Shown: positions 2,907 through 16,764 of the stretch, piece by piece | How the letters are laid out: each line of letters begins with the position of its first letter | How positions within the stretch are numbered: position 1 is the first letter of the stretch | Assembly: GCF_030378065.1 (NCBI RefSeq) | Contig: NZ_JAUCGJ010000046.1 | Span: 1 to 37,542 of the forward strand | DNA length: 37,542 nt | Direction: 5' to 3' | DNA from: Candidatus Venteria ishoeyi | Lineage (GTDB): Bacteria; Pseudomonadota; Gammaproteobacteria; Beggiatoales; Beggiatoaceae | Program-made: the position numbers and the translations under genes | The notes under the pieces: generated by a model | What the model was told of the DNA's origin: nothing | The model's database searches: none | Seen by the model: only the letters and a program-made list of their open reading frames with translations

Positions 2907-3932
2907 CTATTGGTATAACAATCGGGCAGCACTTTGCCCCTTAAACCATTTGCGCCCCTGCCGTTCAGTTTCTTCCAGCAAATGCCGCATGATACCAACA
3001 ACCTTATAAAAATGATTACCGTAATGCTGTATGCCATCTATCCAGTTGTCTTGCTTAATTTCCAAACGTTGCAAAATGGGTCGAATATGCGCGGGAATAG
3101 CGCCACGCTTACCATCACGAATACAGCGCCCAGTCCAATCGACCAGTTCAAAGTATTCTTCCTGGCTGATGGGCAGGCAAACATGCGCATTCTGCGTGGC
3201 TTGAGGTTTCCCGGTCTTTTTAGACTCAGCAAAAGGTAACAGCCATTGGCTTTGTGGTTCTGATTTTGAGACTGATTTCTTTTGAATCTCAACTCTTGCT
3301 GCAAAAGAAGTAAATTCAGAATCTTCCGGGGTTTGCGCAATGGCAGCCCGTACCGGATTGAGGTCAACATACGCCATGCAGCTAATTAAAGCGGCATCAT
3401 CAAGCAAAGCCTGGGATTTGAAACGCCCTTCCCAGAAGCGCCCGGTACACTCATCTTCCTTGTTTGCCTGGCGTGCAATTGGCTCGTTCAGACAACGCAT
3501 AAACCAGCTTAAATCTGCCAAACGTTCCCGCCACAAGGTCACTTTTTCCTCATCTGCTGTCAGACGCGCAAAATAAGCGTTGACCACTTCAGTATCAATT
3601 TGTTTATCATCAGAATCTTTTAACGCCTGTGGTGGAAACAAGGTACACCAACGCTTTACCACTTCCTCAGCATCCCAGGTCAAACTCTGCTCATAATCCA
3701 CATGCAGCACCAGATGATAATGATTACTCATAATGGTATAGGCACAAACCTCAACCGAAAACTGTTTGGCAAGCACTTCCAGCCTGTCCAGTATCCATTG
3801 CCGTCTATGCTCATAATTGCAGCCACTTTGCTTATCAACGCCACATAAAAAAGCACGGCGCACAGCGCGACTGATGCAGTGATAATGACCGTTGGTGTGT
3901 TTGCTGACTTGTTCTTTGCGTGGCGTGGGCAT
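2907..3932 (-). CDS. REP-associated tyrosine transposase (RAYT-type, Y1 HUH superfamily)
   Basis: A 341-residue single-strand transposase of the Y1/IS200-like superfamily. The HUH metal-binding motif is NHYHLVLHV near residue 75, and the region of the catalytic tyrosine is AYVDLNPVRAAIA near residue 195, the arrangement typical of RAYTs. The N-terminal GHYHCISRAVRRAFLCG and the C-terminal extension with DWTGRCIRDGKRG mark a longer subgroup than the ~165-residue E. coli RAYT. RAYTs are single-copy enzymes linked to REP/BIME palindromes, and palindromes of this sort occur elsewhere in the window. A GAGG ribosome site precedes the ATG. It lies 117 bp downstream of the CRISPR array on the same strand, so array read-through could transcribe it. 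Confidence 0.88.
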   Translation of the reverse strand: MPTPRKEQVSKHTNGHYHCISRAVRRAFLCGVDKQSGCNYEHRRQWILDRLEVLAKQFSVEVCAYTIMSNHYHLVLHVDYEQSLTWDAEEVVKRWCTLFPPQALKDSDDKQIDTEVVNAYFARLTADEEKVTLWRERLADLSWFMRCLNEPIARQANKEDECTGRFWEGRFKSQALLDDAALISCMAYVDLNPVRAAIAQTPEDSEFTSFAARVEIQKKSVSKSEPQSQWLLPFAESKKTGKPQATQNAHVCLPISQEEYFELVDWTGRCIRDGKRGAIPAHIRPILQRLEIKQDNWIDGIQHYGNHFYKVVGIMRHLLEETERQGRKWFKGQSAARLLYQ

Positions 3933-3992: not shown

Positions 3993-4052
3993 ATATATTT
4001 TCATGGCTGTCTTTATTTTTTTATATATTTTCATGGCTGTCTTTATTTTTTT
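3993..4052. repeat. 30-bp tandem duplication at the CRISPR trailer
   Basis: Positions 3993-4022 and 4023-4052 are identical 30-bp copies (core ATTTTCATGGCTGTC plus an AT-rich part). The second copy runs three bases into the leader-distal CRISPR repeat at 4050. It is between the array and the RAYT start. It is not a degenerate CRISPR repeat: the repeat stem CTGCC/GGCAG is missing. Confidence 0.85.
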
Positions 4053-7000
4053 CTAAGCTGCCTGTGCGGCAGTCAACTTACTACGGGAGCCGTTACGGGT
4101 GCTGTTACGTTTCTAAGCTGCCTGTGCGGCAGTCAACGATATGGAACTGAACGCGCTCGATATGGTAGATTTCTAAGCTGCCTGTGCGGCAGTCAACAAT
4201 ATTTATAACCGGTCATGTCCCGCCTGGGATTTCTAAGCTGCCTGTGCGGCAGTCAACTATCACTTCTTTTTCGTATCATTTCTGCATTGTTTCTAAGCTG
4301 CCTGTGCGGCAGTCAACTCGTATAGAGTGCGTACTTTCCCGCCGTTCTTTTTCTAAGCTGCCTGTGCGGCAGTCAACACCCCACAGGCGGCGGCGTTCTC
4401 TATGTAGAATTTCTAAGCTGCCTGTGCGGCAGTCAACAGCTTAAAATAGTTACTAATTCAGCTTGACGCTTTCTAAGCTGCCTGTGCGGCAGTCAACTAT
4501 CTGAGTTATCTAACTGGTCTTCTATTATCTTTCTAAGCTGCCTGTGCGGCAGTCAACGCCACAGCCCCGCAGGGTTTTACCCAACCAACTTTCTAAGCTG
4601 CCTGTGCGGCAGTCAACGGATTTCACAAACCTATTTCATGGTACAGGTTTTTCTAAGCTGCCTGTGCGGCAGTCAACCCCATCTACCACCGCCTCGGTTA
4701 TATCTTTGTTTTCTAAGCTGCCTGTGCGGCAGTCAACGCAATATAAATTTATTAACGGCAAATTAGGAGTTTCTAAGCTGCCTGTGCGGCAGTCAACCAT
4801 CACTGTTATCCAGTTGGTCTTCTATCACTTTTCTAAGCTGCCTGTGCGGCAGTCAACCCATGGGAGCCACGGTTTTTATATATACGCTGTTTCTAAGCTG
4901 CCTGTGCGGCAGTCAACTTGATAATCTCAGTTTTCATTTTAATTCCCCTTTTCTAAGCTGCCTGTGCGGCAGTCAACGCCGCTGGTAGCTAATGAGCCAT
5001 ACGGCGAGTTTTCTAAGCTGCCTGTGCGGCAGTCAACTGTGAGGATGGTGGCGGGTTTGGTGCGTGTGATTTCTAAGCTGCCTGTGCGGCAGTCAACAGC
5101 ATGGCGGCGAATCATGGACGTTTTCAGGTTTTTCTAAGCTGCCTGTGCGGCAGTCAACAACAAAAAGCGGCAAACCGTTTAACAATATTCATTTCTAAGC
5201 TGCCTGTGCGGCAGTCAACTATTGCAGGGGACAGATAGAAACACGGGGTTCTTTCTAAGCTGCCTGTGCGGCAGTCAACAGAAACAGGCGCGGCTAAAGT
5301 CGGCTATGGCTTTTCTAAGCTGCCTGTGCGGCAGTCAACCCGCCCTGATTTCTGTACTCAAATCACCTGCCTTTCTAAGCTGCCTGTGCGGCAGTCAACT
5401 TGCTGAATCGTTTAGACTGGCGCTGAGTTGTTTTCTAAGCTGCCTGTGCGGCAGTCAACAGCTTATTTTCAATAACATACTGCAAGTGAGTTTTCTAAGC
5501 TGCCTGTGCGGCAGTCAACTGAAAAAAGCAAAAAGATAAAAGCATTTTTAATTTCTAAGCTGCCTGTGCGGCAGTCAACACGGGAGTGATGAATAATGAG
5601 CATCATTGAACTTTCTAAGCTGCCTGTGCGGCAGTCAACATTCCTGGCAGCGTTGCAGGTTCATCAAGCGTTTTCTAAGCTGCCTGTGCGGCAGTCAACT
5701 CTTCTTTATCCATTATTTGAATCCCCGGATATTTCTAAGCTGCCTGTGCGGCAGTCAACCCCCAAAGGGACACATCATGTTTTTGAGTGCATTTCTAAGC
5801 TGCCTGTGCGGCAGTCAACTCACGGGTGATGGGACTTCAATAATTTCACTTTTTCTAAGCTGCCTGTGCGGCAGTCAACTTCGCAAGTCTGGACAGTGTG
5901 AGGTATTAGAGTTTCTAAGCTGCCTGTGCGGCAGTCAACTTTGCAACCATCTGGACAATGGTTTCAAATCTTTTCTAAGCTGCCTGTGCGGCAGTCAACA
6001 TCCCGACGCTCAAACTCCATTGAAAACCACTTTTCTAAGCTGCCTGTGCGGCAGTCAACGTTTGAGGATTTGTAGGAGGTGTGGCGTGTTTTTTCTAAGC
6101 TGCCTGTGCGGCAGTCAACGAATACTGAATGAGTCATTGAATGCCTGGATATTTCTAAGCTGCCTGTGCGGCAGTCAACTAGACTTTAGTGCCTAAAGAC
6201 CGGACATTTGCTTTCTAAGCTGCCTGTGCGGCAGTCAACGGAATACTATTTATTGCTGGCGGCGCTTTACTTTTCTAAGCTGCCTGTGCGGCAGTCAACG
6301 TTCGCGCTCATAAGGCCTGCAATATCCTTCTTTTCTAAGCTGCCTGTGCGGCAGTCAACTATCAAGGTGAAAAAGTTTTGCGACATTAGCGTTTCTAAGC
6401 TGCCTGTGCGGCAGTCAACAGGCAAAGATCATATTTTCGCCACTTCTTTTATTTCTAAGCTGCCTGTGCGGCAGTCAACGGCTGGCTTGATAAGTTGAAT
6501 CGTGGCGAATTTTTCTAAGCTGCCTGTGCGGCAGTCAACTTGTGAAATCGCTTGAAGTCCATCGTCGGCTATTTCTAAGCTGCCTGTGCGGCAGTCAACG
6601 CGATTTTGATGCAGTTCAGATTGAATGTGATTTTCTAAGCTGCCTGTGCGGCAGTCAACGAACCACAAAGACAGGCTAAGAAGCAGCAGGATTTCTAAGC
6701 TGCCTGTGCGGCAGTCAACAAAATAAAAGCGGCGCAGGAGGCTAAACAGTCTTTCTAAGCTGCCTGTGCGGCAGTCAACGGTGCAGGCAAATCGTTATGG
6801 GTAATTATGCTTTTCTAAGCTGCCTGTGCGGCAGTCAACGTGATGTACTGTTACCAACCGCAGCACGTTCCTTTCTAAGCTGCCTGTGCGGCAGTCAACC
6901 TGTGACACCATAAACACCACTTGTACTATTATTTCTAAGCTGCCTGTGCGGCAGTCAACTATCACGAAAGCGGTACACTGGTTTTTGTACTTTTCTAAGC

Positions 7001-7981
7001 TGCCTGTGCGGCAGTCAACTGAATGTGATATACTGATAAGTGCTTAATTTTTTTCTAAGCTGCCTGTGCGGCAGTCAACAAAAAAACTAAAACTCCCAAA
7101 ATAGGCATTTTTTTCTAAGCTGCCTGTGCGGCAGTCAACTTTGCCGCCGTTTTTGACTTGCTCGCGTTACTTTTCTAAGCTGCCTGTGCGGCAGTCAACA
7201 TACACTAATGCGCCAACCTGTACCATGAAATATTTCTAAGCTGCCTGTGCGGCAGTCAACGACACATTCACAAACCGATTTCACATTACATCTTTTCTAA
7301 GCTGCCTGTGCGGCAGTCAACATAAAAATGAAGTCACTCACAGTCAAGATTGATTTCTAAGCTGCCTGTGCGGCAGTCAACGAAGTCGCAAAAGCTTACG
7401 AAAATGAAACCAATTTCTAAGCTGCCTGTGCGGCAGTCAACAATGACACTGAAAGCTGAGCATTGCTGTCTGTTTTCTAAGCTGCCTGTGCGGCAGTCAA
7501 CTTCGCCTGGGTGATAGTTTCCCCTGAATTGGTTTTCTAAGCTGCCTGTGCGGCAGTCAACTTCCAGCGCTAGAGAGATAGACTGTATCGGTGTTTCTAA
7601 GCTGCCTGTGCGGCAGTCAACAATTAGATATTTTATCATCAAATGTCACACACTTTCTAAGCTGCCTGTGCGGCAGTCAACAAATGAGCGCACAAGCACT
7701 GCAAACAATAACATTTCTAAGCTGCCTGTGCGGCAGTCAACAATATAATGGAGTCGTCGGTTTGCGTGGTGGTTTTCTAAGCTGCCTGTGCGGCAGTCAA
7801 CCCCCAGATGTTCTCATAACAGCGGGCGACGGATTTCTAAGCTGCCTGTGCGGCAGTCAACGATTAGGTCGAGCGTTCTTATATCAACCTCATTTTCTAA
7901 GCTGCCTGTGCGGCAGTCAACTTTTTTGTGAGGCTTAATATTTGGGGATAAATTTTCTAAGCTGCCTGTGCGGCAGTCAAC
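4050..7981 (-). CRISPR. Type I-F CRISPR array, 66 repeats and 65 spacers
   Basis: A 28-bp repeat occurs 66 times without any substitution that I can see. On the transcribed (minus) strand it contains the I-F hairpin CTGCC-GCACA-GGCAG, preceded by GTTGA and followed by CTTAGAAA. Cas6f cleavage 3' of the stem would leave the 8-nt handle CUUAGAAA. Repeats start at 4050 and every 60 bp to 5070, then at 5131 and 5192, every 60 bp to 7172, then at 7233, 7294 and every 60 bp to 7954. Spacers are 32 nt except four of 33 nt (5098-5130, 5159-5191, 7200-7232, 7261-7293). The leader is at the cas6f side, so the newest spacer is 7922-7953 and the oldest 4078-4109. Open frames across the array are translations of the repeat, not genes. 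Confidence 0.99.
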
Positions 7982-8056
7982 TGAAATCCTATCACAAAAT
8001 CCTTTTATAAAACAAAAAAATAAGTCCTTTTTACCCATTTTGACCAATGAAAAAAT

Positions 8057-8101
8057 AGCCCACTTCAAACCATTGATTAATAAATGATTTATCAGTGGGC
8101 C
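8057..8101 (-). terminator. Hairpin terminator after cas6f (U-tracts on both strands)
   Basis: Read on the minus strand, GGCCCACT pairs with AGTGGGCT and, inside that, AAATCATT pairs with AATGGTTT (one G-U), followed directly by ATTTTTT. The plus strand also ends in a CTTTTTT tract, so the hairpin could stop transcription from either side. It sits 12 bp past the cas6f stop and would separate cas mRNA from the array transcript. Confidence 0.7.
8066..8078 (-). promoter_or_regulatory. Exact IHF consensus site in the leader
   Basis: The minus strand reads AATCAATGGTTTG, matching WATCAANNNNTTR at every specified base. It lies 85 bp upstream of the first repeat. IHF bends the leader and is needed for spacer integration in studied I-E and I-F systems, so the site fits that role. 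The site lies inside the terminator stem, so the same bases may serve both. Confidence 0.6.
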
Positions 8102-8112
8102 TTTTTTATTGG

Positions 8113-8694
8113 TTAAAACAGGGGAACTGTACTGTGGGCACTGAGTCCATAGCTGCTAAAACCTGCTTCATGATCAGTTTGTTGAGTTTCTTCATGAGCA
8201 ATCAGCAAGGGGTATTTTTTTCCGGAAGTGTGGCTTTTTATCATGACAAATGGCTTCTTAGCATGTTGTTCTTCGTGTTTCTCCATGATGGACAGGGCTT
8301 GTTCATAACTGATATTTGCCCGTTTGGCTTTGCGTCTGGCCAGACGGAGATTGTTGCTTTTTGGCTGGATGCGCTTAAAAAGCGCATGACCGCGAATGTT
8401 ATCAGGTACGGCTCTGATCCGGGTGATATGAACATAGTCAGCCAACCGGGTCATTTTGGTTTGAATATTCAGCCGTTCTAAATCCATCGTCGTAGCGGCA
8501 AATAGACGTAGTTTGCTACCTAAATATTGTTTTTGAGCATTGTATTCCGGGAAAGCAACGCCTATGTTAATTTTGCCTTGATTATCCTTAGCTTCAACCA
8601 GAACCAGGTGGATTTGTTGATAGAGCTTTTCCCAAAGGAAATGAAGCGGTATTTCCACATCGGGTAACAGCGTCATGTCAATATAGGCTTTCAT
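8113..8694 (-). CDS. cas6f: CRISPR repeat endoribonuclease Cas6f (Csy4)
   Basis: A 193-residue Cas6f starting MKAYIDMTLLPD, 4 nt after the csy3 stop. An ungapped N-terminal comparison with the Pseudomonas Csy4 sequence I remember puts a histidine at residue 29 (KLYQQIH), the position of the catalytic His. A basic helix, LRLARRKAKRA (about residues 112-122), matches the arginine-rich helix that binds the repeat hairpin, and the C-terminal KPFVMIKSHTSGKKYPL and GFSSYGLS match the family core. It cuts pre-crRNA at the 3' base of each hairpin and stays bound to it in the Csy complex. A longer reading frame upstream (to 8856) lies inside csy3 and is rejected. It is the last gene of the csy operon. 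Confidence 0.97.
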   Translation of the reverse strand: MKAYIDMTLLPDVEIPLHFLWEKLYQQIHLVLVEAKDNQGKINIGVAFPEYNAQKQYLGSKLRLFAATTMDLERLNIQTKMTRLADYVHITRIRAVPDNIRGHALFKRIQPKSNNLRLARRKAKRANISYEQALSIMEKHEEQHAKKPFVMIKSHTSGKKYPLLIAHEETQQTDHEAGFSSYGLSAHSTVPLF

Positions 8695-8698
8695 CACA

Positions 8699-9739
8699 TC
8701 AGTCCTTTGTGCTTTCACCAAATACGCCACCACGCACCAGCACAGCCATGACATAGTGCGTGTCGTTTTTATCCTCCAGAGATTCGCCACGGGCAAAACG
8801 ATCAAACAGGGTGAAAAAATCAGCCTTGGCCTTGGGCGTGCGGTAGGCTTTACCAAGATTGGTCACAGCGCCGTAAGGTTCAATGGCAATAGGGCCGGTA
8901 TTGGCTTCAAGGTATTCGGGATACCAGGTATCAATGGTACGCAGGGCGTTACCAATTTTTTGTGAGTGCATTCCGGCTATATCGTTAATGCTGTAAAGTA
9001 TTTTGCTTTTTTTGCCCTTGCTGCTGCCGCTGCTTTTATCCAGCACCAGTTCTTCACTGGGATAAACATCTTGCGCTTTGCCTATCTGAGCATAGGCATT
9101 GATTTCCAGCAGCAGAAAATCATCTGCTCCTGAGAGGGCTGCTGCTATTTTTTCAGCCAGCGTATCTATACTGGCATCATTGTGGTCAAAATTACGGATG
9201 CTGAATTTTGTGGCGTCAAATGTCCAGCTTTGTTCTTCGTCGCCGTTGAGCTTTTTAACCTGGACTTCAATATTTTCCGCGCCCACCCGGTTGCGCCATA
9301 AAAAACGCGCATTGGCAATATTCATGGCGTAGCGTTTTGCCAGTTCGTTAAAACCTTCTGTTTCAATGTAATTATTGGCAGCCTGGGTGTAGCTTTCGTT
9401 AAACGCCTGGTTGTTACAGGCTGAGGGTTGTTGAACACCACTGAGAATTTTAAGCGTGAACTGGAGTTTCAGCGTGTCCTGGTTTGGAGAGAGGGCGCAA
9501 CTGTCAACGCGCTGGAGGTTGGCTTTTTCGACTTCAGCATTGAGTTTAAGGGGATCATTTTTTATGGCAGCTTTGGTGATGCGGTTGGAAATGGTGCCGC
9601 GCACAGATTTTTCCTGTAGCTTGAGCACTACCGCGCTGTCATGGCGCTGCTCCCAAGTGGTGCCGTACATAAAGCCGTCAGAGGGTACGAATTTTTTTTC
9701 AAAAGCGAGTACAGAGGCGATATTGTCTTTTTTAGCCAT
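8699..9739 (-). CDS. csy3: Type I-F Cascade backbone subunit Csy3 (Cas7f)
   Basis: A 346-residue Cas7f. Diagnostic blocks are SVLAFEKKFVPSDGFMYG at the N-terminus, EKSVRGTISNR, ANARFLWRNRVGAENIEVQV, HSQKIGNALRTIDTWYP, IEPYGAVTNLGKAYRTPK and a C-terminal VRGGVFGE. The first and last parts closely parallel Pseudomonas Csy3 (about 342 residues). Six copies form the helical backbone that holds the 32-nt guide. AAGGA about 10 nt before the ATG serves as ribosome site. A 76-bp gap separates it from csy2, which is long for this operon but holds no clear signal. Confidence 0.97.
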   Translation of the reverse strand: MAKKDNIASVLAFEKKFVPSDGFMYGTTWEQRHDSAVVLKLQEKSVRGTISNRITKAAIKNDPLKLNAEVEKANLQRVDSCALSPNQDTLKLQFTLKILSGVQQPSACNNQAFNESYTQAANNYIETEGFNELAKRYAMNIANARFLWRNRVGAENIEVQVKKLNGDEEQSWTFDATKFSIRNFDHNDASIDTLAEKIAAALSGADDFLLLEINAYAQIGKAQDVYPSEELVLDKSSGSSKGKKSKILYSINDIAGMHSQKIGNALRTIDTWYPEYLEANTGPIAIEPYGAVTNLGKAYRTPKAKADFFTLFDRFARGESLEDKNDTHYVMAVLVRGGVFGESTKD

Positions 9740-9815
9740 GATATTTTTTTCCTTTGTTTCAAAAATCTAGTGTGAGACGGAAGCAGTTTTTTGTGTGATT
9801 AGCGCAAAAAGAAGC

Positions 9816-10709
9816 TTACGTCGAACTTAGGTTAACTTGTTTATTTTGTTGGCAGAGATAAAGGTTTGTGTTTAAGTCGGTGTGATAGTGCCACAGCATC
9901 TGGTCAAGATCAGTGACACGGTAGGGCATAATAAATTCTCCTAAGGTGATGATGCTTTCTGCAAAGCGGTGTGGGGTTTCGGGATCACGTTGATTTTTAG
10001 CTTGACCCAGCTCGCTTATGCCATGAAAACCCGTAGCAATCGGTACAATCCAGCCTTTTTCCTTGCGCTCGCTGTGCCAGGTAATTTTTTCCTGTTCATC
10101 AACATGGCTGCGGTGGGTGACTTTGAGGTAGTCCAGCAGGGCATCAATGGCATCCTGACCTGTCGCCATTGCTTGTTGCATGAGGTCGCGGCGTTCAATG
10201 AGGCAGTGACCGGGCATGAGGCTGCGCATTAAGGCTTTGTGTTCAGCTTCATCGTCAATTTCTTGTAACTTGGCTTGGGCCGTTTTAAGTATATCGCCGC
10301 CAGCCAGTTTCATTTTTCCCCGCAATAGTTGAACGGTTGCATCCGTGAATTCATCTTCGTCAATGAAGCCCAGACCTTCACATTCCATAATGAGAGATAC
10401 CGTTAAATGACAGCGGGCTTCTTCGATAAATGAGGGGCGTTTGCCGGTTTTATCCAGCGGATTGCCTGTGCCGATAATAGAATGCACATAATCTCCCGCG
10501 CCTTTGTAAGTTTGCAGGTTTATGTGATGACAAACCACTGCCATGCTTTTGAAGCGCAGGTTGGGATAGTCCATTTCTCTGAGTTGACGTTCCAGCGCAT
10601 GAGTTGCGCCCAGCCAGGCAGTCATGGCAGGAAAGCCAATAGTATAGGGGCTGGAAAGGGCATTGGCATTCAATATTTCGATTTGGGGAATCAGCAGTAT
10701 TTTTTTCAT
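9816..10709 (-). CDS. csy2: Type I-F Cascade subunit Csy2 (Cas5f)
   Basis: A 297-residue Cas5f recognised by its N-terminus (LLIPQIEILNANALSSPYTI then GFPAMTAWLGATHALER) and C-terminal region (WIVPIATGFHGISELGQAKN, RFAESIITLGEF). It binds the 5' handle of the crRNA together with Csy1 and contributes to PAM recognition at the tail of the complex. Its ATG overlaps the csy1 stop in an ATGA (10706-10709), so the two are translationally coupled. Confidence 0.95.
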   Translation of the reverse strand: MKKILLIPQIEILNANALSSPYTIGFPAMTAWLGATHALERQLREMDYPNLRFKSMAVVCHHINLQTYKGAGDYVHSIIGTGNPLDKTGKRPSFIEEARCHLTVSLIMECEGLGFIDEDEFTDATVQLLRGKMKLAGGDILKTAQAKLQEIDDEAEHKALMRSLMPGHCLIERRDLMQQAMATGQDAIDALLDYLKVTHRSHVDEQEKITWHSERKEKGWIVPIATGFHGISELGQAKNQRDPETPHRFAESIITLGEFIMPYRVTDLDQMLWHYHTDLNTNLYLCQQNKQVNLSST

Positions 10710-11953
10710 TGTAAGGCGTTCTCACAGTCATTGATAATGGCTTTGATATGCGGCAGTTGTTCATCACCAAGCCCCAGTTTTTTCTCCTCTATGATTTTGT
10801 CATAAGCGCGTATAAACCAGTTTGCCAGTTCCTGTTTTACGTTGTCCAGCCATTGCGTGTCTTCGCTTCGCACCGGGGCATGGTGTTCATCCAGCCAGAT
10901 TTTTTGGTACTGGGGGAGTTGCTGGTAAGTTTCAGTTATTGACCAGCCCGGTTCCAGGCGGCGTATGAGCCAGGCATAATCAATGACCTGATAAATAATG
11001 CTGCGTATAAGCCAATCACGTTGCTGACGGGTATGGATATTGGGTTTGCCATGAACCAATAGCTGATGGAATTTTTGAAAATCTTCTTCATAGGGTTTCA
11101 GCCACAAGAATTTGCCAAAAAAATTGGTTTTGGGCGGCTGGGTTGTACGCGGGTTAAGCTCAGGTGGCATAGAAGGCAATAAATAGGCAATACCACCATT
11201 TTGGCTGTTAAGCACGCTGATATTCTGTTTATTTGAACCACCATAACCTATTGCACTGAGTCCATAAATATCCGCAAAGCCCTGCTCATGAGCATGGTTA
11301 TCTTTACGTGATTTCCTTGCCACTTTGGCTTCATCGGAAAAGCGTATATTGTTAATCTGGTGTTTGAGTTTAAAGAGCAGACCGGAAGGGGAGAGTATGG
11401 AAAGCAGGTGATAGTCATCACCAGCAAGCGGAAAATACACTTGTTTGAGCTTGCCATCGGTGGTGGTGCAGGGGTGAGAGTCTTGCTTGATAGCTAACAA
11501 CCCCTGCTCAATGTCACTGAAAGTGGCAGTGGAAATGCTGAATTGTTGTTTAATGGCAGCGGTTTTATTTTCCAGATGATTGAGAATAGTATTGCCGTCT
11601 GCCAGCTTCAGGCTGAGGAATTTATGCACATCCAAAGCCGCAGCATTACCAACAAATACATCTAAATTTACTTTAGCATTGCCTGTGCGCAAAAAACCAT
11701 CGGCAGACTGCTGGGCATCACTGATAATGGAACTGGTTTTGGCATCGGGGTGACTGAATTTTCCCGGATGACTGGTTAAGGAGAGTTGTCTGGCACGTTT
11801 GGCGGCATCAGGCAGCCAGGTAGCCAGTGCGTATTTGTCTGTGGCTTCTTGTTCAATAAGGGCTTGTTCTGCTTCTGTTTTATTTTTAAGTCTGCTTTTA
11901 AGCCAGTTTGCTTTGCGTTCATTAAGAAAGTTTTGGATTACAGGATCTAACAT
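10706..11953 (-). CDS. csy1: Type I-F Cascade large subunit Csy1 (Cas8f)
   Basis: A 415-residue Csy1. The N-terminus (ILDP-like MLDPVIQNFLNERKANWLK), the block HPDAKTSSI followed by DGFLRTGN, the GYGGSNKQNISVLNSQNGG segment and SMPPELNPR match the Cas8f family, which checks the PAM and helps load target DNA. A strong AGGAGG (11958-11963) lies 4 nt before the ATG, and a TATAAT-like -10 follows at 11982-11987. Normally csy1 follows cas2-3 closely; here a hicAB remnant of about 0.5 kb on the opposite strand lies between, so csy1-csy2-csy3-cas6f should be transcribed on their own. Confidence 0.95.
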   Translation of the reverse strand: MLDPVIQNFLNERKANWLKSRLKNKTEAEQALIEQEATDKYALATWLPDAAKRARQLSLTSHPGKFSHPDAKTSSIISDAQQSADGFLRTGNAKVNLDVFVGNAAALDVHKFLSLKLADGNTILNHLENKTAAIKQQFSISTATFSDIEQGLLAIKQDSHPCTTTDGKLKQVYFPLAGDDYHLLSILSPSGLLFKLKHQINNIRFSDEAKVARKSRKDNHAHEQGFADIYGLSAIGYGGSNKQNISVLNSQNGGIAYLLPSMPPELNPRTTQPPKTNFFGKFLWLKPYEEDFQKFHQLLVHGKPNIHTRQQRDWLIRSIIYQVIDYAWLIRRLEPGWSITETYQQLPQYQKIWLDEHHAPVRSEDTQWLDNVKQELANWFIRAYDKIIEEKKLGLGDEQLPHIKAIINDCENALQ

Positions 11954-11981
11954 TTGGCCTCCTTTTTTGAGGATAAAAAAT

Positions 11982-12010
11982 ATTATAGATTTTCAATATA
12001 TTTTGTATTG
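11982..12010 (-). promoter_or_regulatory. Candidate promoter of the csy operon
   Basis: On the minus strand a perfect TATAAT (11982-11987) lies about 30 nt before the csy1 ATG. The -35 region at the 17-bp spacing reads CAATAC (12005-12010), which is weak and would suit an activated or repressed promoter. It explains how csy genes are expressed despite the inserted TA module. Confidence 0.5.
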
Positions 12011-12011
12011 A
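11993..12011. promoter_or_regulatory. Inverted repeat, candidate HicB operator
   Basis: TCAATA (11993-11998) and TATTGA (12006-12011) form a perfect 6-bp inverted repeat with a 7-bp spacer. It covers the spacer and -35 zone of the csy promoter and lies 25 bp before the hicA relic start, where HicB-type antitoxins usually bind their own operator. The assignment is inference; short AT-rich repeats also arise by chance. Confidence 0.3.
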
Positions 12012-12035
12012 TAATACCAAAATTAGGTACTATAA

Positions 12036-12164
12036 ATGAAGCATAGATAGTAAAAAATATTTGTATTTATTCCTGCCAAACCCATTGCTCCTAATATTAT
12101 ATGGAAAGATATTGAGGCTTTATTTCGGACACTTGATGCATTTATATTGGTGAGAGAAAAATGA
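12036..12164 (+). pseudogene. hicA: Decayed hicA toxin relic
   Basis: The frame starting ATG at 12036 reads MKHR, two stops (12048-12053), then KIFVFIPAKPIAPN and IIWKDIEALFRTLDAF, before a stop at 12162. The block P-x-x-x-N-I-x-W-x-DIE-x-L-x-x-x-L-x-A is the N-terminal half of the HicA subgroup that normally continues into a glycine/serine-rich and 'HRPHP' active-site half. That second half, with the catalytic His, is absent. The toxin is thus both interrupted and truncated and cannot be active. It lies directly before hicB, in the usual hicA-hicB order. Confidence 0.75.
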
Positions 12165-12173
12165 GGGGCATTC

Positions 12174-12509
12174 ATGAAGAACGTAATGGACTTTAATGGG
12201 TATAAGGCCGTTATTCATTATGATCCTGAAATCGAAATGTTCAGAGGTGAATTTGTCAACCTTAATGGTGGCGCTGATTTTTATGCAGCAGATATTAAAG
12301 GCTTGCATCATGAGGGTCAGTTATCTCTTAATATGTTTTTGGATATGTGCAAAAAAGATGGCGTGGAACCTAAAAAATATTACTCCGGTAAGTTTAATGT
12401 GCGTTTAACGCCGGATTTACATGCCGATGTTGTGGTTGCGGCAAACGCAGCAGGAAAAAGCATCAATCAATGGTTGGTTGATTTTTTATCAAATGCCCTT
12501 AAACATTAA
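12174..12509 (+). CDS. hicB: HicB-family antitoxin, orphan
   Basis: A 111-residue HicB. The N-terminal half (GYKAVIHYDPEIEMFRGEFV, then FYAADIKGL) is the partial RNase H-like fold that blocks HicA, and the C-terminal KFNVRLTPDLHADVVVAANA plus GKSINQWLVDFL is a ribbon-helix-helix type DNA-binding part. GAGGGG 6 nt before the ATG supports the start; M5 is an alternative. The partner toxin just upstream is a broken relic, so this is an orphan antitoxin whose remaining activity would be DNA binding. It lies on the plus strand inside the minus-strand cas operon, and its stop overlaps the cas2-3 stop by a few bases. Confidence 0.9.
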   Translation: MKNVMDFNGYKAVIHYDPEIEMFRGEFVNLNGGADFYAADIKGLHHEGQLSLNMFLDMCKKDGVEPKKYYSGKFNVRLTPDLHADVVVAANAAGKSINQWLVDFLSNALKH

Positions 12510-15500
12510 ACACGAATCAAGCCCAGTTGGCTGGAATAGCTGAAAGCCATATCTCCCGGATCATTACCATAAGTAGGCAGGCTGATTTCTCCATAAATCA
12601 GCGCCACTTGTTTCAGCGCATCTTCCGCTTCTGCTTCCCGTATTCCGCTATAATTGCGTAACAGGGTTTCATAATCCCGTGTCAGCCATAAGCGTTGGCT
12701 TTCCTGCGTATTCAGTTCTTCGTGTTTGATATTGTATGAACATTCTTTAATCAGCGACTTGCCAAATGTGTCTTTTTCAGCAAATTTCCAGTCGTCATCA
12801 GCAGGCACCAAGTACATCAGTTGCTGCGGTTCACTTTTGCGAAATTGCACATAATATTGCGGAATTGCCGTCAGCCACCAATACCCCGTCAGCCAGCCCT
12901 GCATAGACTCCGGCCCTTGTTGCTCATAGTTGGTGAGGCATTGATGGATGGCAACATGTTCCAAATCTGCCAGATTATGCCGTGGGTTCAGCGTAGATGC
13001 TTTGTTGATGCGTGGCTTTGCATCCAGACATTGGCTGATAGCCCCGGCATTAATCAGTTGTTTCAGGTCGTGCGTGTCCAAAGGATTATTGTTTGATTCA
13101 TAGCCGGGATGGCAAAAAACAGGTTTGCCTGTGTTTAATAAACCTTTGAGGTTGTATTGTAGCAGGGCAATGTTGGCAGTTTGAATGGGGGGTTCTGGTT
13201 CACGGTGACGCAATACCCGCCCTGCCAGTTGCACAAAAGAGCGATAAGAAGAAGGTTCAACCACGGCCCAGTCAAAGTCATGATCTCGCCCCACTTCTTC
13301 AACCGGCGTGGCAACCAGGATAAAAATAACCTGCGGCGCGGTGATGCTTTGTAAGTGCTGGCGAATGTGTTTTTGCTCGAAAGCAGCCTGACTGCCTTGT
13401 TGGCGCTTGAGCACGGCATCCAGATGTTTTTCCTGGGCATTACGCATAATAAGAATTTGCTGGCTGTGGTAAGCCATAGCACGAATTTCCACATCTTGCG
13501 GCCATTGGGCGTTGAGCAAATAGCGGGTTAGCGCAACGCAGGGGTTAATGTTGGCAATGCGAACCAGACCAAAACTGACACATTTTCCTGATTGTTCGTC
13601 CGTTTGATAGTGTTGCTGGTGCTTTTCTAAAATAGCAGTTTGAATTGTGGCATAAAATTGTTTACGGATGCTTTCTTCATCCTCATTATCCATTGAACAG
13701 GCAATAATATCCGCCTTGCGTTTCGGCGTTTGCTTTTCAAGTTCGCTGGTGCGTTTATCAATAAATTTTTGATGGTGTTTTTGGTAGTCGTTAAGGCCGT
13801 GATCGTCACCTGTGATTTGGATACTGTGAACCTGGGTGGTGAATTCATCCATCCAGGCGCAGCCAACGCTGGCATTGCGCTGGCGCATTTGGGCAAACAG
13901 CGCCCAGCCTGCCTGATAGGTGTTGTAATAACCTTCGGCAATGTCGGGGGGAATGGTTGCCGAAGAAATCATCACTTTGCGCCCTAACATACCTGCCAGG
14001 TGAATCAGGCGACCAATGGCAATCAGATCATTTCCATCAAAATCATCAATTTCATCAATCACCAGGTCTGAGGACATGAGGCGCAGTGTGGGCAGTATGT
14101 AACGCCCACCACGTTTACTTTCAGTTGCTGCCATGAGGTGATCAATGGTGCAACTGAGTACCGGGGCGAATAGAAATTTGCGGTCTTTTTCCCGCGTTAA
14201 AACCGTTTTGAGTTCAGTTTCAGGAATTTCAGTGTGAAAGTCGATTTCATTATCCAGCAGGTATTCTTCAGATTCTGAGCCAGTGGCGGTTTGGGCTTCT
14301 TCTGTTTGTTCTTGTTTATTTTTATTGTGCAAATCCATGACTGCGCGGGAACCAATCAAAACCGCCAGTTCATCATTGCCCAGTTTAATACGCTGGCGAT
14401 ATTCATCTCCGGTTTGCAGGGTCAGGGTGCGCAAACCCAAAGCCAAAATATAACGCAAACTTTCCCCATCAGCGGATAAGGTGCGCATAATCTTGGCATT
14501 GGCAAAGGTTTTTCCGGTTCCCGTGCTTGCCATATTGACAGCAAAAAAACCAAAATGGCTGCTAGTTTCAAGTTTATCCTGGCTGCTTTTCCAGTGTTTG
14601 ATTTTACTCACAGCGGTGTCTTGCCAACAAAATCGACCTTGGCTTTTGCGCTTTAAGGCTTTGACATCATAAGCACGTTGCAGTTCTTTGTGTTCTCCTT
14701 CAAATGCGGGTAACAGGTGGGCATTGCGCAATGCTTGTCGGCTGACGCCTATGAGGTGCTCATCCAGTTTTTGTTTGAGTTTTTTGGTTTTTCTGTCACT
14801 GTTGGCATATAAGTCGAGTGTTGTTTGCCATTTGTTATCTGCCTCCTGAGATGAGTAGCAATGATCCCCCAACATCAATGCCAGACGTGTGTGATGTAAC
14901 AATAAGCGCCAGGTGCCATCGTTAATACTTTGGCTTAATAAGGGCAGGCAGTCATGGAGTTTTTGCGCTTGCTTGCGTGCCGCTTTCAGCCAGATTTCCG
15001 AATCGCAAGGCAGACCTTGGGGATAATCAAAGCAGCGTTTAAGATCGTGTTTAAATGTATTTTTATCAAATTTATTTTCATAACCCCATTTCTGGGTGAT
15101 GTTCTGAAATAAAAGTTCAGGCTCTGGTAAGGGAGTACCAGCATGAGATTTAAGGATGGGCAAACGATGATGCGATAGCAGCAACCAATTCAACAAGGTA
15201 GCCATTTGGGGAAGCTTATTTAAGGGTTTATTTTTATCTTGTTGTTTCTGGTGTTGTACAGAGACCTGTTTTTTCAGGGTCTCGGTTTCAATTTCTCCCT
15301 TTGCCAAGCGGCTTAGCCATTGCTCATCTGTTTCGCCATTCACATAAGCATTTAGGAATAAAGCTGAAATCCATTCATGACGTAGCGGATCAGCGATGAT
15401 TTTTGAAGTTTTTAATTTGCTTTGAAAAAACTCGGAAGCCTTGCCCCAATCATGAAACAGTGCCGCCATCGCAGCAAGGCTTTTGATTAAAGGCAGGTAA

Positions 15501-15820
15501 TGCCAGTCATTTTCCCATTGGGTATTCATAATGGTTTTGCGGGTGGTGTTCACAGGCACGATACCCTGACTGTTGAAACGCTCACGATTCCCGACTATCC
15601 AGATTAATTCACTGCGACTGCGGCTGCGAATCCAGTGACAAGCCACAGCGGTATTTTTGGAGGCAGTTTTGCGTAGCAGTTTTTTAACTGCTTGCAGGCC
15701 ATCATTGGTAATAACAGTTTGCCAGGTGCGGTCGCCTATGCGGTTGGCAAAAGCATCCAGAACGCGGCGGGTTTTGTTGAGGGATTTTTTTTCGCATTGC
15801 GCAACAAATGTGACCATCAT
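12506..15820 (-). CDS. cas3: Cas2-Cas3 fusion nuclease-helicase (type I-F)
   Basis: A 1104-residue fusion characteristic of I-F. Residues 1-95 are the Cas2 domain (VAQCEKKSLNKTRRVLDAFA, NTAVACHWIR). An HD nuclease follows with LFHDWGKASEFFQ (His123-Asp124) and DPLRHEW. The SF2 helicase has Walker A ASTGTGKTF (431-439), DEID (589-592), the SAT motif (620-622) and the late Q/GR motif FVQLAGRVLRHR. It joins Cas1 for spacer integration and degrades targets marked by the Csy complex. Its start overlaps the cas1 stop (ATGA, 15817-15820). All key motifs are intact, so both adaptation and interference look functional. Confidence 0.97.
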   Translation of the reverse strand: MMVTFVAQCEKKSLNKTRRVLDAFANRIGDRTWQTVITNDGLQAVKKLLRKTASKNTAVACHWIRSRSRSELIWIVGNRERFNSQGIVPVNTTRKTIMNTQWENDWHYLPLIKSLAAMAALFHDWGKASEFFQSKLKTSKIIADPLRHEWISALFLNAYVNGETDEQWLSRLAKGEIETETLKKQVSVQHQKQQDKNKPLNKLPQMATLLNWLLLSHHRLPILKSHAGTPLPEPELLFQNITQKWGYENKFDKNTFKHDLKRCFDYPQGLPCDSEIWLKAARKQAQKLHDCLPLLSQSINDGTWRLLLHHTRLALMLGDHCYSSQEADNKWQTTLDLYANSDRKTKKLKQKLDEHLIGVSRQALRNAHLLPAFEGEHKELQRAYDVKALKRKSQGRFCWQDTAVSKIKHWKSSQDKLETSSHFGFFAVNMASTGTGKTFANAKIMRTLSADGESLRYILALGLRTLTLQTGDEYRQRIKLGNDELAVLIGSRAVMDLHNKNKQEQTEEAQTATGSESEEYLLDNEIDFHTEIPETELKTVLTREKDRKFLFAPVLSCTIDHLMAATESKRGGRYILPTLRLMSSDLVIDEIDDFDGNDLIAIGRLIHLAGMLGRKVMISSATIPPDIAEGYYNTYQAGWALFAQMRQRNASVGCAWMDEFTTQVHSIQITGDDHGLNDYQKHHQKFIDKRTSELEKQTPKRKADIIACSMDNEDEESIRKQFYATIQTAILEKHQQHYQTDEQSGKCVSFGLVRIANINPCVALTRYLLNAQWPQDVEIRAMAYHSQQILIMRNAQEKHLDAVLKRQQGSQAAFEQKHIRQHLQSITAPQVIFILVATPVEEVGRDHDFDWAVVEPSSYRSFVQLAGRVLRHREPEPPIQTANIALLQYNLKGLLNTGKPVFCHPGYESNNNPLDTHDLKQLINAGAISQCLDAKPRINKASTLNPRHNLADLEHVAIHQCLTNYEQQGPESMQGWLTGYWWLTAIPQYYVQFRKSEPQQLMYLVPADDDWKFAEKDTFGKSLIKECSYNIKHEELNTQESQRLWLTRDYETLLRNYSGIREAEAEDALKQVALIYGEISLPTYGNDPGDMAFSYSSQLGLIRV

Positions 15821-16764
15821 AATTGGCTGCCCTCATCACTGAGTTGTTTGAGGCTATCAAACATAAAGTCGAGTGCTTTATGCTGCGCAAAATTTTGCAG
15901 ACATTGCTGGCGAAATTCCTGTTCAGTGGTTTGCTCCTGGGCGCAAATAAAAGCCCAGGGCAGAATCAGGCTGTCTTTGACCAGATCAGCCACATCAAAA
16001 ACCAAAGCTCCACGGCGGGTTTTACCGTGTAACACGGCAAAACCGTGAGGGATACCCAAAACCCAGAGGGTGGTTGCTGCCAGTCCATAGGCAAGATAGT
16101 TACCGTGATTCAGGAAAATATTAGCTTCATCTGTCGCATTGTCCTGGTTGCGGACAAATTCCAGTTGGGTACGCTTGGCAGCAATTTTATAAAGTCTTTT
16201 GGTAAGCTGAGCTTCGGTTAAAAGTAAATGAGTGGTGTTGGGGCATTGTTCTATTTCTGTAGAAAACCGGCTTATTGCTTGTTGAATATCGGCATCGTCA
16301 GCATAAAATCCGGCGTTGTGAAGTGCTTTGTCTTTGCTCCAGACCCGTTGCAGGTATTCCAGGCGCAGTAGCTGAAATTTTTTGGCGACTTTAAGACGCT
16401 TGGTTTCGTCAAACCAGAAGGATAGCCAGTTTTGAACATATTCAGTGGGGCGGTATTCACTTTGCGGGGAAAGCCATTCAACTTCATTGCCAGCAATCAG
16501 CGGCGTGCCGCCGCCACCGCTAAAACCCAGCAAGACTCCGGCGGCAGCCATCATGCGCACGGCAGCCTGGGTGATAGAAGTACCAGTGCCAAGCAGAACA
16601 ACGGTGGTATTGGCTATCGGGATATTCCAGTATTGCTTTTCCGTTTTGGCTTCGGTGAGATAGACAACACGCCCACTTTTGACCATGACGCGGCATTTTT
16701 CAATGTAATAAATATTGGCGCGTTTTGAGTGAAGTATTGCTTTGAGATCGGTTAAATATTCCAT
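15817..16764 (-). CDS. cas1: CRISPR integrase Cas1 (type I-F)
   Basis: A 315-residue Cas1f. LKAILHSKRANIYYIEKCRV, WNIPIANTTVVLLGTGTSIT, GVLLGFSGGGGTPL and SEYRPTEYVQNW are typical of I-F. Metal-binding residues are expected in LLLTEAQLTKRLYK (Glu), LNHGNYLAYG and HGKTRRGALVFDVADL (His, Asp), all present. It forms a complex with Cas2-3 that integrates new spacers at the leader end. It is the first gene of the adaptation operon; the ribosome site is weak. The upstream 87 bp (16765-16851) hold a large palindrome and a TTGAAG that could be a -35. Confidence 0.97.
   Translation of the reverse strand: MEYLTDLKAILHSKRANIYYIEKCRVMVKSGRVVYLTEAKTEKQYWNIPIANTTVVLLGTGTSITQAAVRMMAAAGVLLGFSGGGGTPLIAGNEVEWLSPQSEYRPTEYVQNWLSFWFDETKRLKVAKKFQLLRLEYLQRVWSKDKALHNAGFYADDADIQQAISRFSTEIEQCPNTTHLLLTEAQLTKRLYKIAAKRTQLEFVRNQDNATDEANIFLNHGNYLAYGLAATTLWVLGIPHGFAVLHGKTRRGALVFDVADLVKDSLILPWAFICAQEQTTEQEFRQQCLQNFAQHKALDFMFDSLKQLSDEGSQL

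What the first reader, a model, noticed from the sequence alone, without database searches (positions are those of the whole stretch)
4618..7293. Two overlapping spacers reveal each other's 5'-CC PAM
Spacer 4618-4649 and spacer 7200-7232 share 18 nt in opposite orientation (4632-4649 equals the reverse complement of 7215-7232). The union gives a 47-nt target piece. In the crRNA sense, the base pair before the first spacer's target is read from the second as GCGCC, ending in CC at 7213-7214. The base pair before the second's target is read from the first as AAACC, ending in CC at 4630-4631. Both match the known type I-F 5'-CC PAM, and the overlapping part is the PAM-proximal seed of both. So the PAM can be read from the array alone, and the same site was sampled on both strands at distant times (10th and 53rd spacer from the old end). 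This pattern is what primed or repeated acquisition from one invader lineage would leave.
Basis: partly seen in the sequence, partly recalled or inferred. Interest (0 to 1): 0.75.

Follow-up and report, generated by a model that had tools for sequence, protein, structure and literature searches.

The report
Overlapping CRISPR spacers reveal their PAM
A bacterium's CRISPR immune memory holds several pairs of snippets taken from the same spots of unknown invaders, and because they overlap, the short signal the machinery uses to choose them can be read from the memory alone; the biology is ordinary for this CRISPR type, but the self-decoding is neat.

Summary
Spacers 10 (4618-4649) and 53 (7200-7232) of a 65-spacer type I-F array share 18 nt in opposite orientation; each shows the other's upstream flank, and both flanks end in CC. 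About 1.4e-5 such pairs are expected by chance in this array.

It is not isolated. The same assembly holds a second I-F array (91 spacers, contig C107) and a type I-E array (153 intervals, C75). Among 308 normal-length spacers, 13 pairs score 15 or more; of 16 shuffled sets, two gave one such pair each. Every I-F flank readable over two bases is CC: 4 of 4 here and 2 of 2 in related arrays. I-E flanks read AA at 4 of 4 sites.

So the arrays reveal both PAMs and show repeated sampling of the same sites in related, sometimes diverged, invaders. CC is the known I-F PAM, and overlapping spacers read as natural priming are in print (PMC5071653). Priming is not shown here: random resampling of about 90 kb of invader DNA would give as many overlaps. 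The merged 47-nt target was found in no collection searched. A seed-mutation signature failed a wider test.

The parts
4050..7981 (-). type I-F CRISPR array A, 66 identical 28-nt repeats and 65 spacers; crRNA sense is the - strand, oldest spacer at 4078
   Evidence: repeat also in array B
4618..4649 (-). spacer A10; its target is preceded by GCGCC as read from A53
7200..7232 (-). spacer A53 (33 nt); its target is preceded by AAACC as read from A10
4632..4649 (-). 18 nt shared with A53, PAM-proximal part of both spacers
7261..7293 (-). spacer A54, next to A53; resembles A10 with a 1-nt shift (21 of 31 positions), borderline
   Evidence: score 14.5, reached by 1 of 60 shuffled sets
4498..4529 (-). 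spacer A08; shares 24 nt with B62 of the second array, which gives ACCCC upstream of A08
4798..4829 (-). spacer A13; same register as A08, 22 of 32 identical, peptides VIEDQLDNSD / IIEDQLDNSD, so the same protospacer in a diverged relative
   Evidence: same-register score 13.5, 0 of 60 shuffled sets
5038..5069 (-). spacer A17; overlaps type I-E spacer E137, which gives GCCCC upstream of A17
6000..6031 (-). spacer A33; overlaps I-E spacer E042 in opposite orientation, no PAM readable
6300..6331 (-). spacer A38; overlaps I-E spacer E077 in opposite orientation, no PAM readable
7442..7473 (-). spacer A57; same site as B01 (1-nt slip) and overlapping I-E spacer E020
7502..7533 (-). spacer A58; same register as B20, mismatches only at positions 3-6
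7982..8080 (-). presumed leader; identical to the start of contig C107, which carries array B
8113..8856 (-). cas6f (csy4); the domain covers residues 58-247, so the true start probably lies inside this ORF
8699..9739 (-). csy3 (cas7f), the only match of this family in the assembly
9816..10709 (-). csy2 (cas5f)
10706..11953 (-). csy1 (cas8f)
12506..15820 (-). cas2-3 fusion
15817..16764 (-). cas1 of the I-F kind (best PADLOC model is Cas1fv, then Cas1f)

Best explanation
This is an ordinary, complete type I-F CRISPR-Cas locus whose Cas1:Cas2-3 machinery picks 32-33-nt pieces next to 5'-CC (spacer sense). The host met the same invader lineage, or relatives of it, more than once, and the adaptation machinery hit the same or overlapping PAM sites again. 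Where two independent samples overlap, one spacer contains the DNA that flanked the other's protospacer, so the PAM can be read without the target. Shown: the overlaps, the CC flanks, the same in a second I-F array, and AA flanks for I-E spacers in the same assembly. Inferred: that the targets are phages or plasmids, that the copies came from separate encounters, and that existing immunity (primed or interference-driven acquisition) helped the re-sampling.
For: 18-nt overlap with CC on both sides; chance 1.4e-5. 13 pairs scoring 15 or more among 308 spacers; of 16 shuffled sets, two gave one such pair each. I-F flanks readable over two bases: A08, A10, A53, A17 all CC, plus L010 TTACC and L014 ACGCC: 6 of 6, against a CC frequency of about 0.05 in spacers. 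A57 gives one readable base, C. Spacer B11 matches an ssb gene of a family member at 27 of 32 positions with CC upstream. I-E flanks AA at 4 of 4 sites, each spacer starting with T or C. Complete I-F cas operon. A or T at spacer position 1 in 117 of 156 own and 592 of 828 related spacers, as reported for the I-F system of Pectobacterium (PMC5059440, passages).
Against: No real target was found, so origin and PAM rest on the spacers themselves and one homologous gene. Whether array B belongs to the same cell or to another strain in the assembly is not settled. In the same-register pairs (A58/B20, A08/A13) no PAM can be read.
Confidence: 0.93

Rival explanations
1. The re-sampling was driven by priming or interference: an older spacer that matches fully or in part recruited Cas1:Cas2-3, which then took new spacers close by, on either strand.
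For: Re-sampled spacers cluster in the array: 8, 10, 13 and 53, 54, 57, 58; pairs within 5 places P = 0.0047 with A54, 0.022 without it, 0.044 with only the exact overlaps of 18 nt or more. [quoted passage not shown] Two I-F arrays can cross-prime (PMC7056967, passages).
Against: The clustering test is post hoc and partly rests on a borderline member. The count of overlaps needs no priming. If re-sampling followed seed escape, mismatches in same-register pairs should lie near the PAM; they do in A58/B20 and E080/E096, but over all 9 such pairs found only 5 have their mean in the PAM-proximal half (P 0.5).
Confidence: 0.45
2. Plain PAM-directed resampling of a small pool of invaders, with no help from older spacers.
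For: With 156 I-F spacers drawn evenly from about 90 kb, 3.9 pairs overlapping by 18 nt or more are expected; four were seen.
Against: Clustering along the array; from the literature, primed uptake far exceeds naive uptake in I-F (PMC5059440, passages). The pool size is fitted, not measured.
Confidence: 0.5
3. Chance identity, or an assembly artefact that copied spacers.
For: Array B shares exactly its leader start with the window contig and lies on a short contig, so the assembly is imperfect here.
Against: Chance 1.4e-5 for the 18 nt. A10 and A53 lie inside one contig with different flanks and opposite orientation, which copying would not give. Peptide-level conservation with many synonymous changes in A08/A13.
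Confidence: 0.02

Closest known systems
Overlapping spacer pairs against LME-1 in Legionella pneumophila, type I-C (PMC5071653; section 12 read)
   Same: Two spacers of one system target overlapping regions at different times; read there as escape followed by naturally primed acquisition.
   Different: There the target is known and the older spacer carries a PAM or seed mismatch; here no target is known, the system is I-F, and the PAM is read from the spacers.
Type I-F adaptation in Pectobacterium atrosepticum (PMC5059440 and PMC4117759; passages)
   Same: PAM of two bases (GG beside the protospacer, CC in spacer sense), about 90% 32-nt and 10% 33-nt spacers, A or T favoured as first base, uptake from both strands.
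   Different: Laboratory plasmids there; here a natural record with no found target.
Cross-priming between two type I-F systems in Legionella (PMC7056967; passages)
   Same: Two I-F arrays with near-identical repeats that can learn from the same invader.
   Different: There two cas sets and experiments; here only one csy3 in the assembly and no experiment.

Membership tests
Type I-F (I-F1) CRISPR-Cas | csy1, csy2, csy3, csy4, cas1 and a cas2-3 fusion | tested here: met
Type I-F (I-F1) CRISPR-Cas | 28-nt repeats with the I-F stem and 32-33-nt spacers | tested here: met
   same repeat type in 23 of 30 related csy3 loci
Type I-F (I-F1) CRISPR-Cas | 5'-CC PAM in spacer sense | tested here: met
   4 of 4 two-base flanks in this genome and 2 of 2 in relatives; no mapped target
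Primed adaptation | new spacers near a partly matching older protospacer, more often than without it | tested here: inconclusive
   clustering P 0.005 to 0.044, post hoc; overlap count fits random resampling
Primed adaptation | older spacer mismatched in seed or PAM against the re-sampled invader | tested here: inconclusive
   two striking pairs but 5 of 9 overall; for A10/A53 the shared seed and PAM are intact
Type I-E system on contig C75 (side finding) | cas8e, cas11e, cas7e, cas5e, cas6e, cas1e, cas2e beside an array of 28-nt repeats with 33-nt intervals | tested here: met
   cas3 was not looked for

The most novel reading that the evidence does not exclude
Three arrays of two CRISPR types (I-F and I-E) in one genome keep re-sampling the same few protospacers of a diverging invader family, and immunity against an old site (also across types) steers new acquisition back to it, so that arrays alone hold small target assemblies, both PAMs and a record of invader divergence.
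Probability: 0.3. Interest if true: 0.6.

Novelty: new member of a known kind. Interest (0 to 1): 0.35.

Why it matters
Where no invader genome is known, as here, overlapping spacers in long arrays give the PAM, short stretches of target and signs of invader divergence directly from the host genome. In this assembly the trick works for two CRISPR types at once, and it worked in two of the related I-F arrays, so it could be run on long arrays at large. The biology it shows, repeated sampling at CC sites, is what is already known for type I-F.

Tried and rejected
Finding the target. Window array against phages: 7 records, best E 1. Array B against phages: 10 records, best E 2. Window array against plasmids: 71 records; the 30 listed look like repeat-driven CRISPR matches and I did not screen them for spacer hits, and 33 records reached the piece limit. 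Merged 47 nt against phages and plasmids: 3 and 4 records, best E 3 and 0.8, none covering 80%. Merged 40 nt of A08/B62: phages 8 records, best E 2; plasmids none. A58 against plasmids: 28 records, best listed E 3. The 18-mer of A10/A53 and the 20-mer of A58/B20 gave no IMG/VR hit. Degenerate patterns: none for A08 long form, A57/B01, A58/B20 and B23/B76. The shorter A08/A13 pattern had 2 IMG/VR hits, one in a phage tail tube gene (PF18906; phrog_290) with peptide KIIEDQLDN; at DNA level the match is no better than shuffled spacers and a search for relatives found only the same contig. Kept as a weak lead only.

Seed-escape signature. A58/B20 differ only at positions 3-6 and E080/E096 at 3-9 and 12, which looked like seed escape. 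Over all same-register pairs found in 46,872 comparisons it was 5 of 9 (three of the nine are one trio in L007), so I dropped it as a claim.

Prophage idea. A third own-genome match of the A57/B01 core, on C75, was first taken for a prophage; it is a spacer of a type I-E array.

Weak pairs not counted: A20/B91 (12.5), A43/E018 (14.5), B51/E075 (14.0), E067/E119 (14.0), B71/E081 and B44/E089 (13.5), B23/B76 (peptide score 37 against a shuffle maximum of 34 in three sets). The 627-base interval E151 was dropped before the counts; the identical neighbours B54 and B55 were not counted as a pair.

Full report
What is there. The window carries a complete type I-F locus: csy4, csy3, csy2, csy1, cas2-3 and cas1 at 8113-16764 on the - strand, with a 66-repeat array at 4050-7981. 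I name spacers A01 (oldest, 4078) to A65 (next to the leader), in crRNA sense. The finding's two spacers are A10 and A53. Their 18-nt overlap in opposite orientation, and the CC before each target, are exactly as described. By chance 1.4e-5 such pairs are expected in this array.

More arrays. The repeat also occurs on contig C107 of the same assembly, a 5.8-kb contig with 92 repeats and 91 spacers (array B, B01 next to the leader). Its first 100 bases equal the window's leader and its trailer is 97% identical to the window's. The assembly has one csy3. No spacer is identical between A and B. Contig C75 carries a type I-E system: 154 repeats at 104031-113989 and cas2e, cas1e, cas5e, cas7e, cas6e, cas11e and cas8e. 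It came to light because the core of A57/B01 matched one of its spacers.

Overlaps. Of the 308 normal-length spacers (156 I-F, 152 I-E), 13 pairs score 15 or more in ungapped comparison, both strands; of 16 dinucleotide-shuffled sets, two gave one pair each at that level (scores 16.5 and 15.5) and fourteen none. The pairs are A58/B20, E067/E088, A08/B62, A57/B01, E054/E094, E080/E096, A57/E020, E045/E047, B01/E020, A38/E077, A10/A53, A33/E042 and A17/E137. So the I-F and I-E arrays record some of the same sites. A08/A13 score lower (13.5) but lie in the same register, where none of 60 shuffled sets reached that score, and both encode [V/I]IEDQLDNSD: one protospacer in two diverged relatives. 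A57/B01 likewise encode MTLKAEH[C/Y]CL.

PAM. In each pair where one spacer extends at least two bases upstream of another I-F spacer's start, those bases are CC: A08 (from B62), A10 (from A53), A53 (from A10), A17 (from the I-E spacer E137). A57 has one readable base, C. I ran the same within-array comparison on 828 spacers of 26 repeat runs in 23 of 30 related csy3 loci: 7 pairs, two with readable flanks, TTACC in L010 and ACGCC in L014. That makes 6 of 6, where CC makes up about 5% of dinucleotides in these spacers. One homologous gene agrees: B11 matches an ssb gene of a family genome at 27 of 32 positions behind TCAGCC; B11 has no second match in the own genome with up to 3 mismatches. 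That genome search used array B only, against 32 family genomes. For the I-E spacers the readable flanks are AA at 4 of 4 sites (5 reads), each followed by a spacer that starts with T or C; 149 of 153 I-E intervals start with T or C, which fits a PAM-derived first base, as stated for type I-E in PMC5059440 (passages).

Mechanism. The pattern is what Cas1:Cas2-3 gives when it samples the same small pool again: CC-anchored starts, extra bases at the PAM-distal end (A53), both strands. The A or T preference at position 1 (117 of 156 own, 592 of 828 related) is reported for Pectobacterium (PMC5059440, passages). Whether old spacers steered the new ones is open. For: the re-sampled spacers of array A cluster (8, 10, 13; 53, 54, 57, 58), P 0.0047, 0.022 or 0.044 for three choices of the set, all post hoc; and I-F priming is strong and takes both strands (PMC4117759 and PMC5059440, passages). 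Against: even sampling of about 90 kb gives the four overlaps of 18 nt or more seen among 156 I-F spacers; and seed escape is not a general feature, since only 5 of 9 same-register pairs have mismatches centred in the PAM-proximal half.

A10/A53 itself. The overlap shows that, in the invader that gave A53, the first 18 nt of A10's target and A10's CC were intact if A10 was still present, so A10 should still have bound it. If old immunity helped here, it was interference-driven uptake rather than priming by a seed escape mutant. This is inference. A54, next to A53, resembles A10 at 21 of 31 positions with a 1-nt shift; 1 of 60 shuffled sets reached its score, so it is a lead only.

Known or new. 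CC as I-F PAM is established (PMC8482600, passages). Overlapping spacers in one system, read as natural priming, were described for Legionella I-C (PMC5071653, section 12); cross-priming between two I-F systems is shown in PMC7056967 (passages). Eight text searches listed no paper that I recognised as decoding two PAMs from overlapping spacers alone, but I saw listings and passages only, so I make no claim of absence. The I-F seed positions are recalled and come from no call.

Limits.

Noticed in passing
L041:100-5596 (own contig C107): Second I-F array, 91 spacers, none identical to the window's 65; first 100 bases equal the window's leader, trailer 97% identical. The shared start (99 nt plus one repeat, 127 nt) looks like an assembly graph node, so it may be a second locus or another strain's allele.
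   Followed up: partly
own contig C75:104031-119737 (L065, L066): Type I-E system with 154 repeats; several of its spacers overlap I-F spacers of the same assembly; first base of the interval is T or C in 149 of 153.
   Followed up: yes
own contig C75:104181-104807: A 627-base interval near the old end of the I-E array, holding several short GC-rich repeated motifs; perhaps an inserted element.
   Followed up: no
window 4050-7981 and related loci: First spacer base is A or T in 117 of 156 own and 592 of 828 related I-F spacers; matches a preference reported in PMC5059440.
   Followed up: yes
window 4050-7981: All 66 repeats are identical, the terminal one included. PMC7056967 describes uniform repeats as a possible scar of array collapse and refilling.
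   Followed up: no
window 2907-3932: IS200-like transposase gene beside the array's old end (Pfam match below the curated cut-off); its 5' region has 18 matches in the assembly, and a near-identical copy flanks array B.
   Followed up: partly
L041, spacer B11 (728-759): B11 matches an ssb gene of a family genome (27 of 32) with CC upstream, so its target is probably an ssb gene of an invader.
   Followed up: partly
L041, spacers B54 and B55: Identical neighbouring spacers, a duplicated repeat-spacer unit.
   Followed up: no
L007 spacers 13, 18, 57; L003 25, 26; L029 4, 15; L008 3, 74: Same-register, diverged spacer pairs also occur in related I-F arrays; no false pairs in 10 shuffled data sets.
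   Followed up: partly
L053:9688-10644: IMG/VR phage tail tube protein with KIIEDQLDN, the peptide of A08/A13; may point to the gene they target, but the match is short and the DNA match is at chance level.
   Followed up: partly
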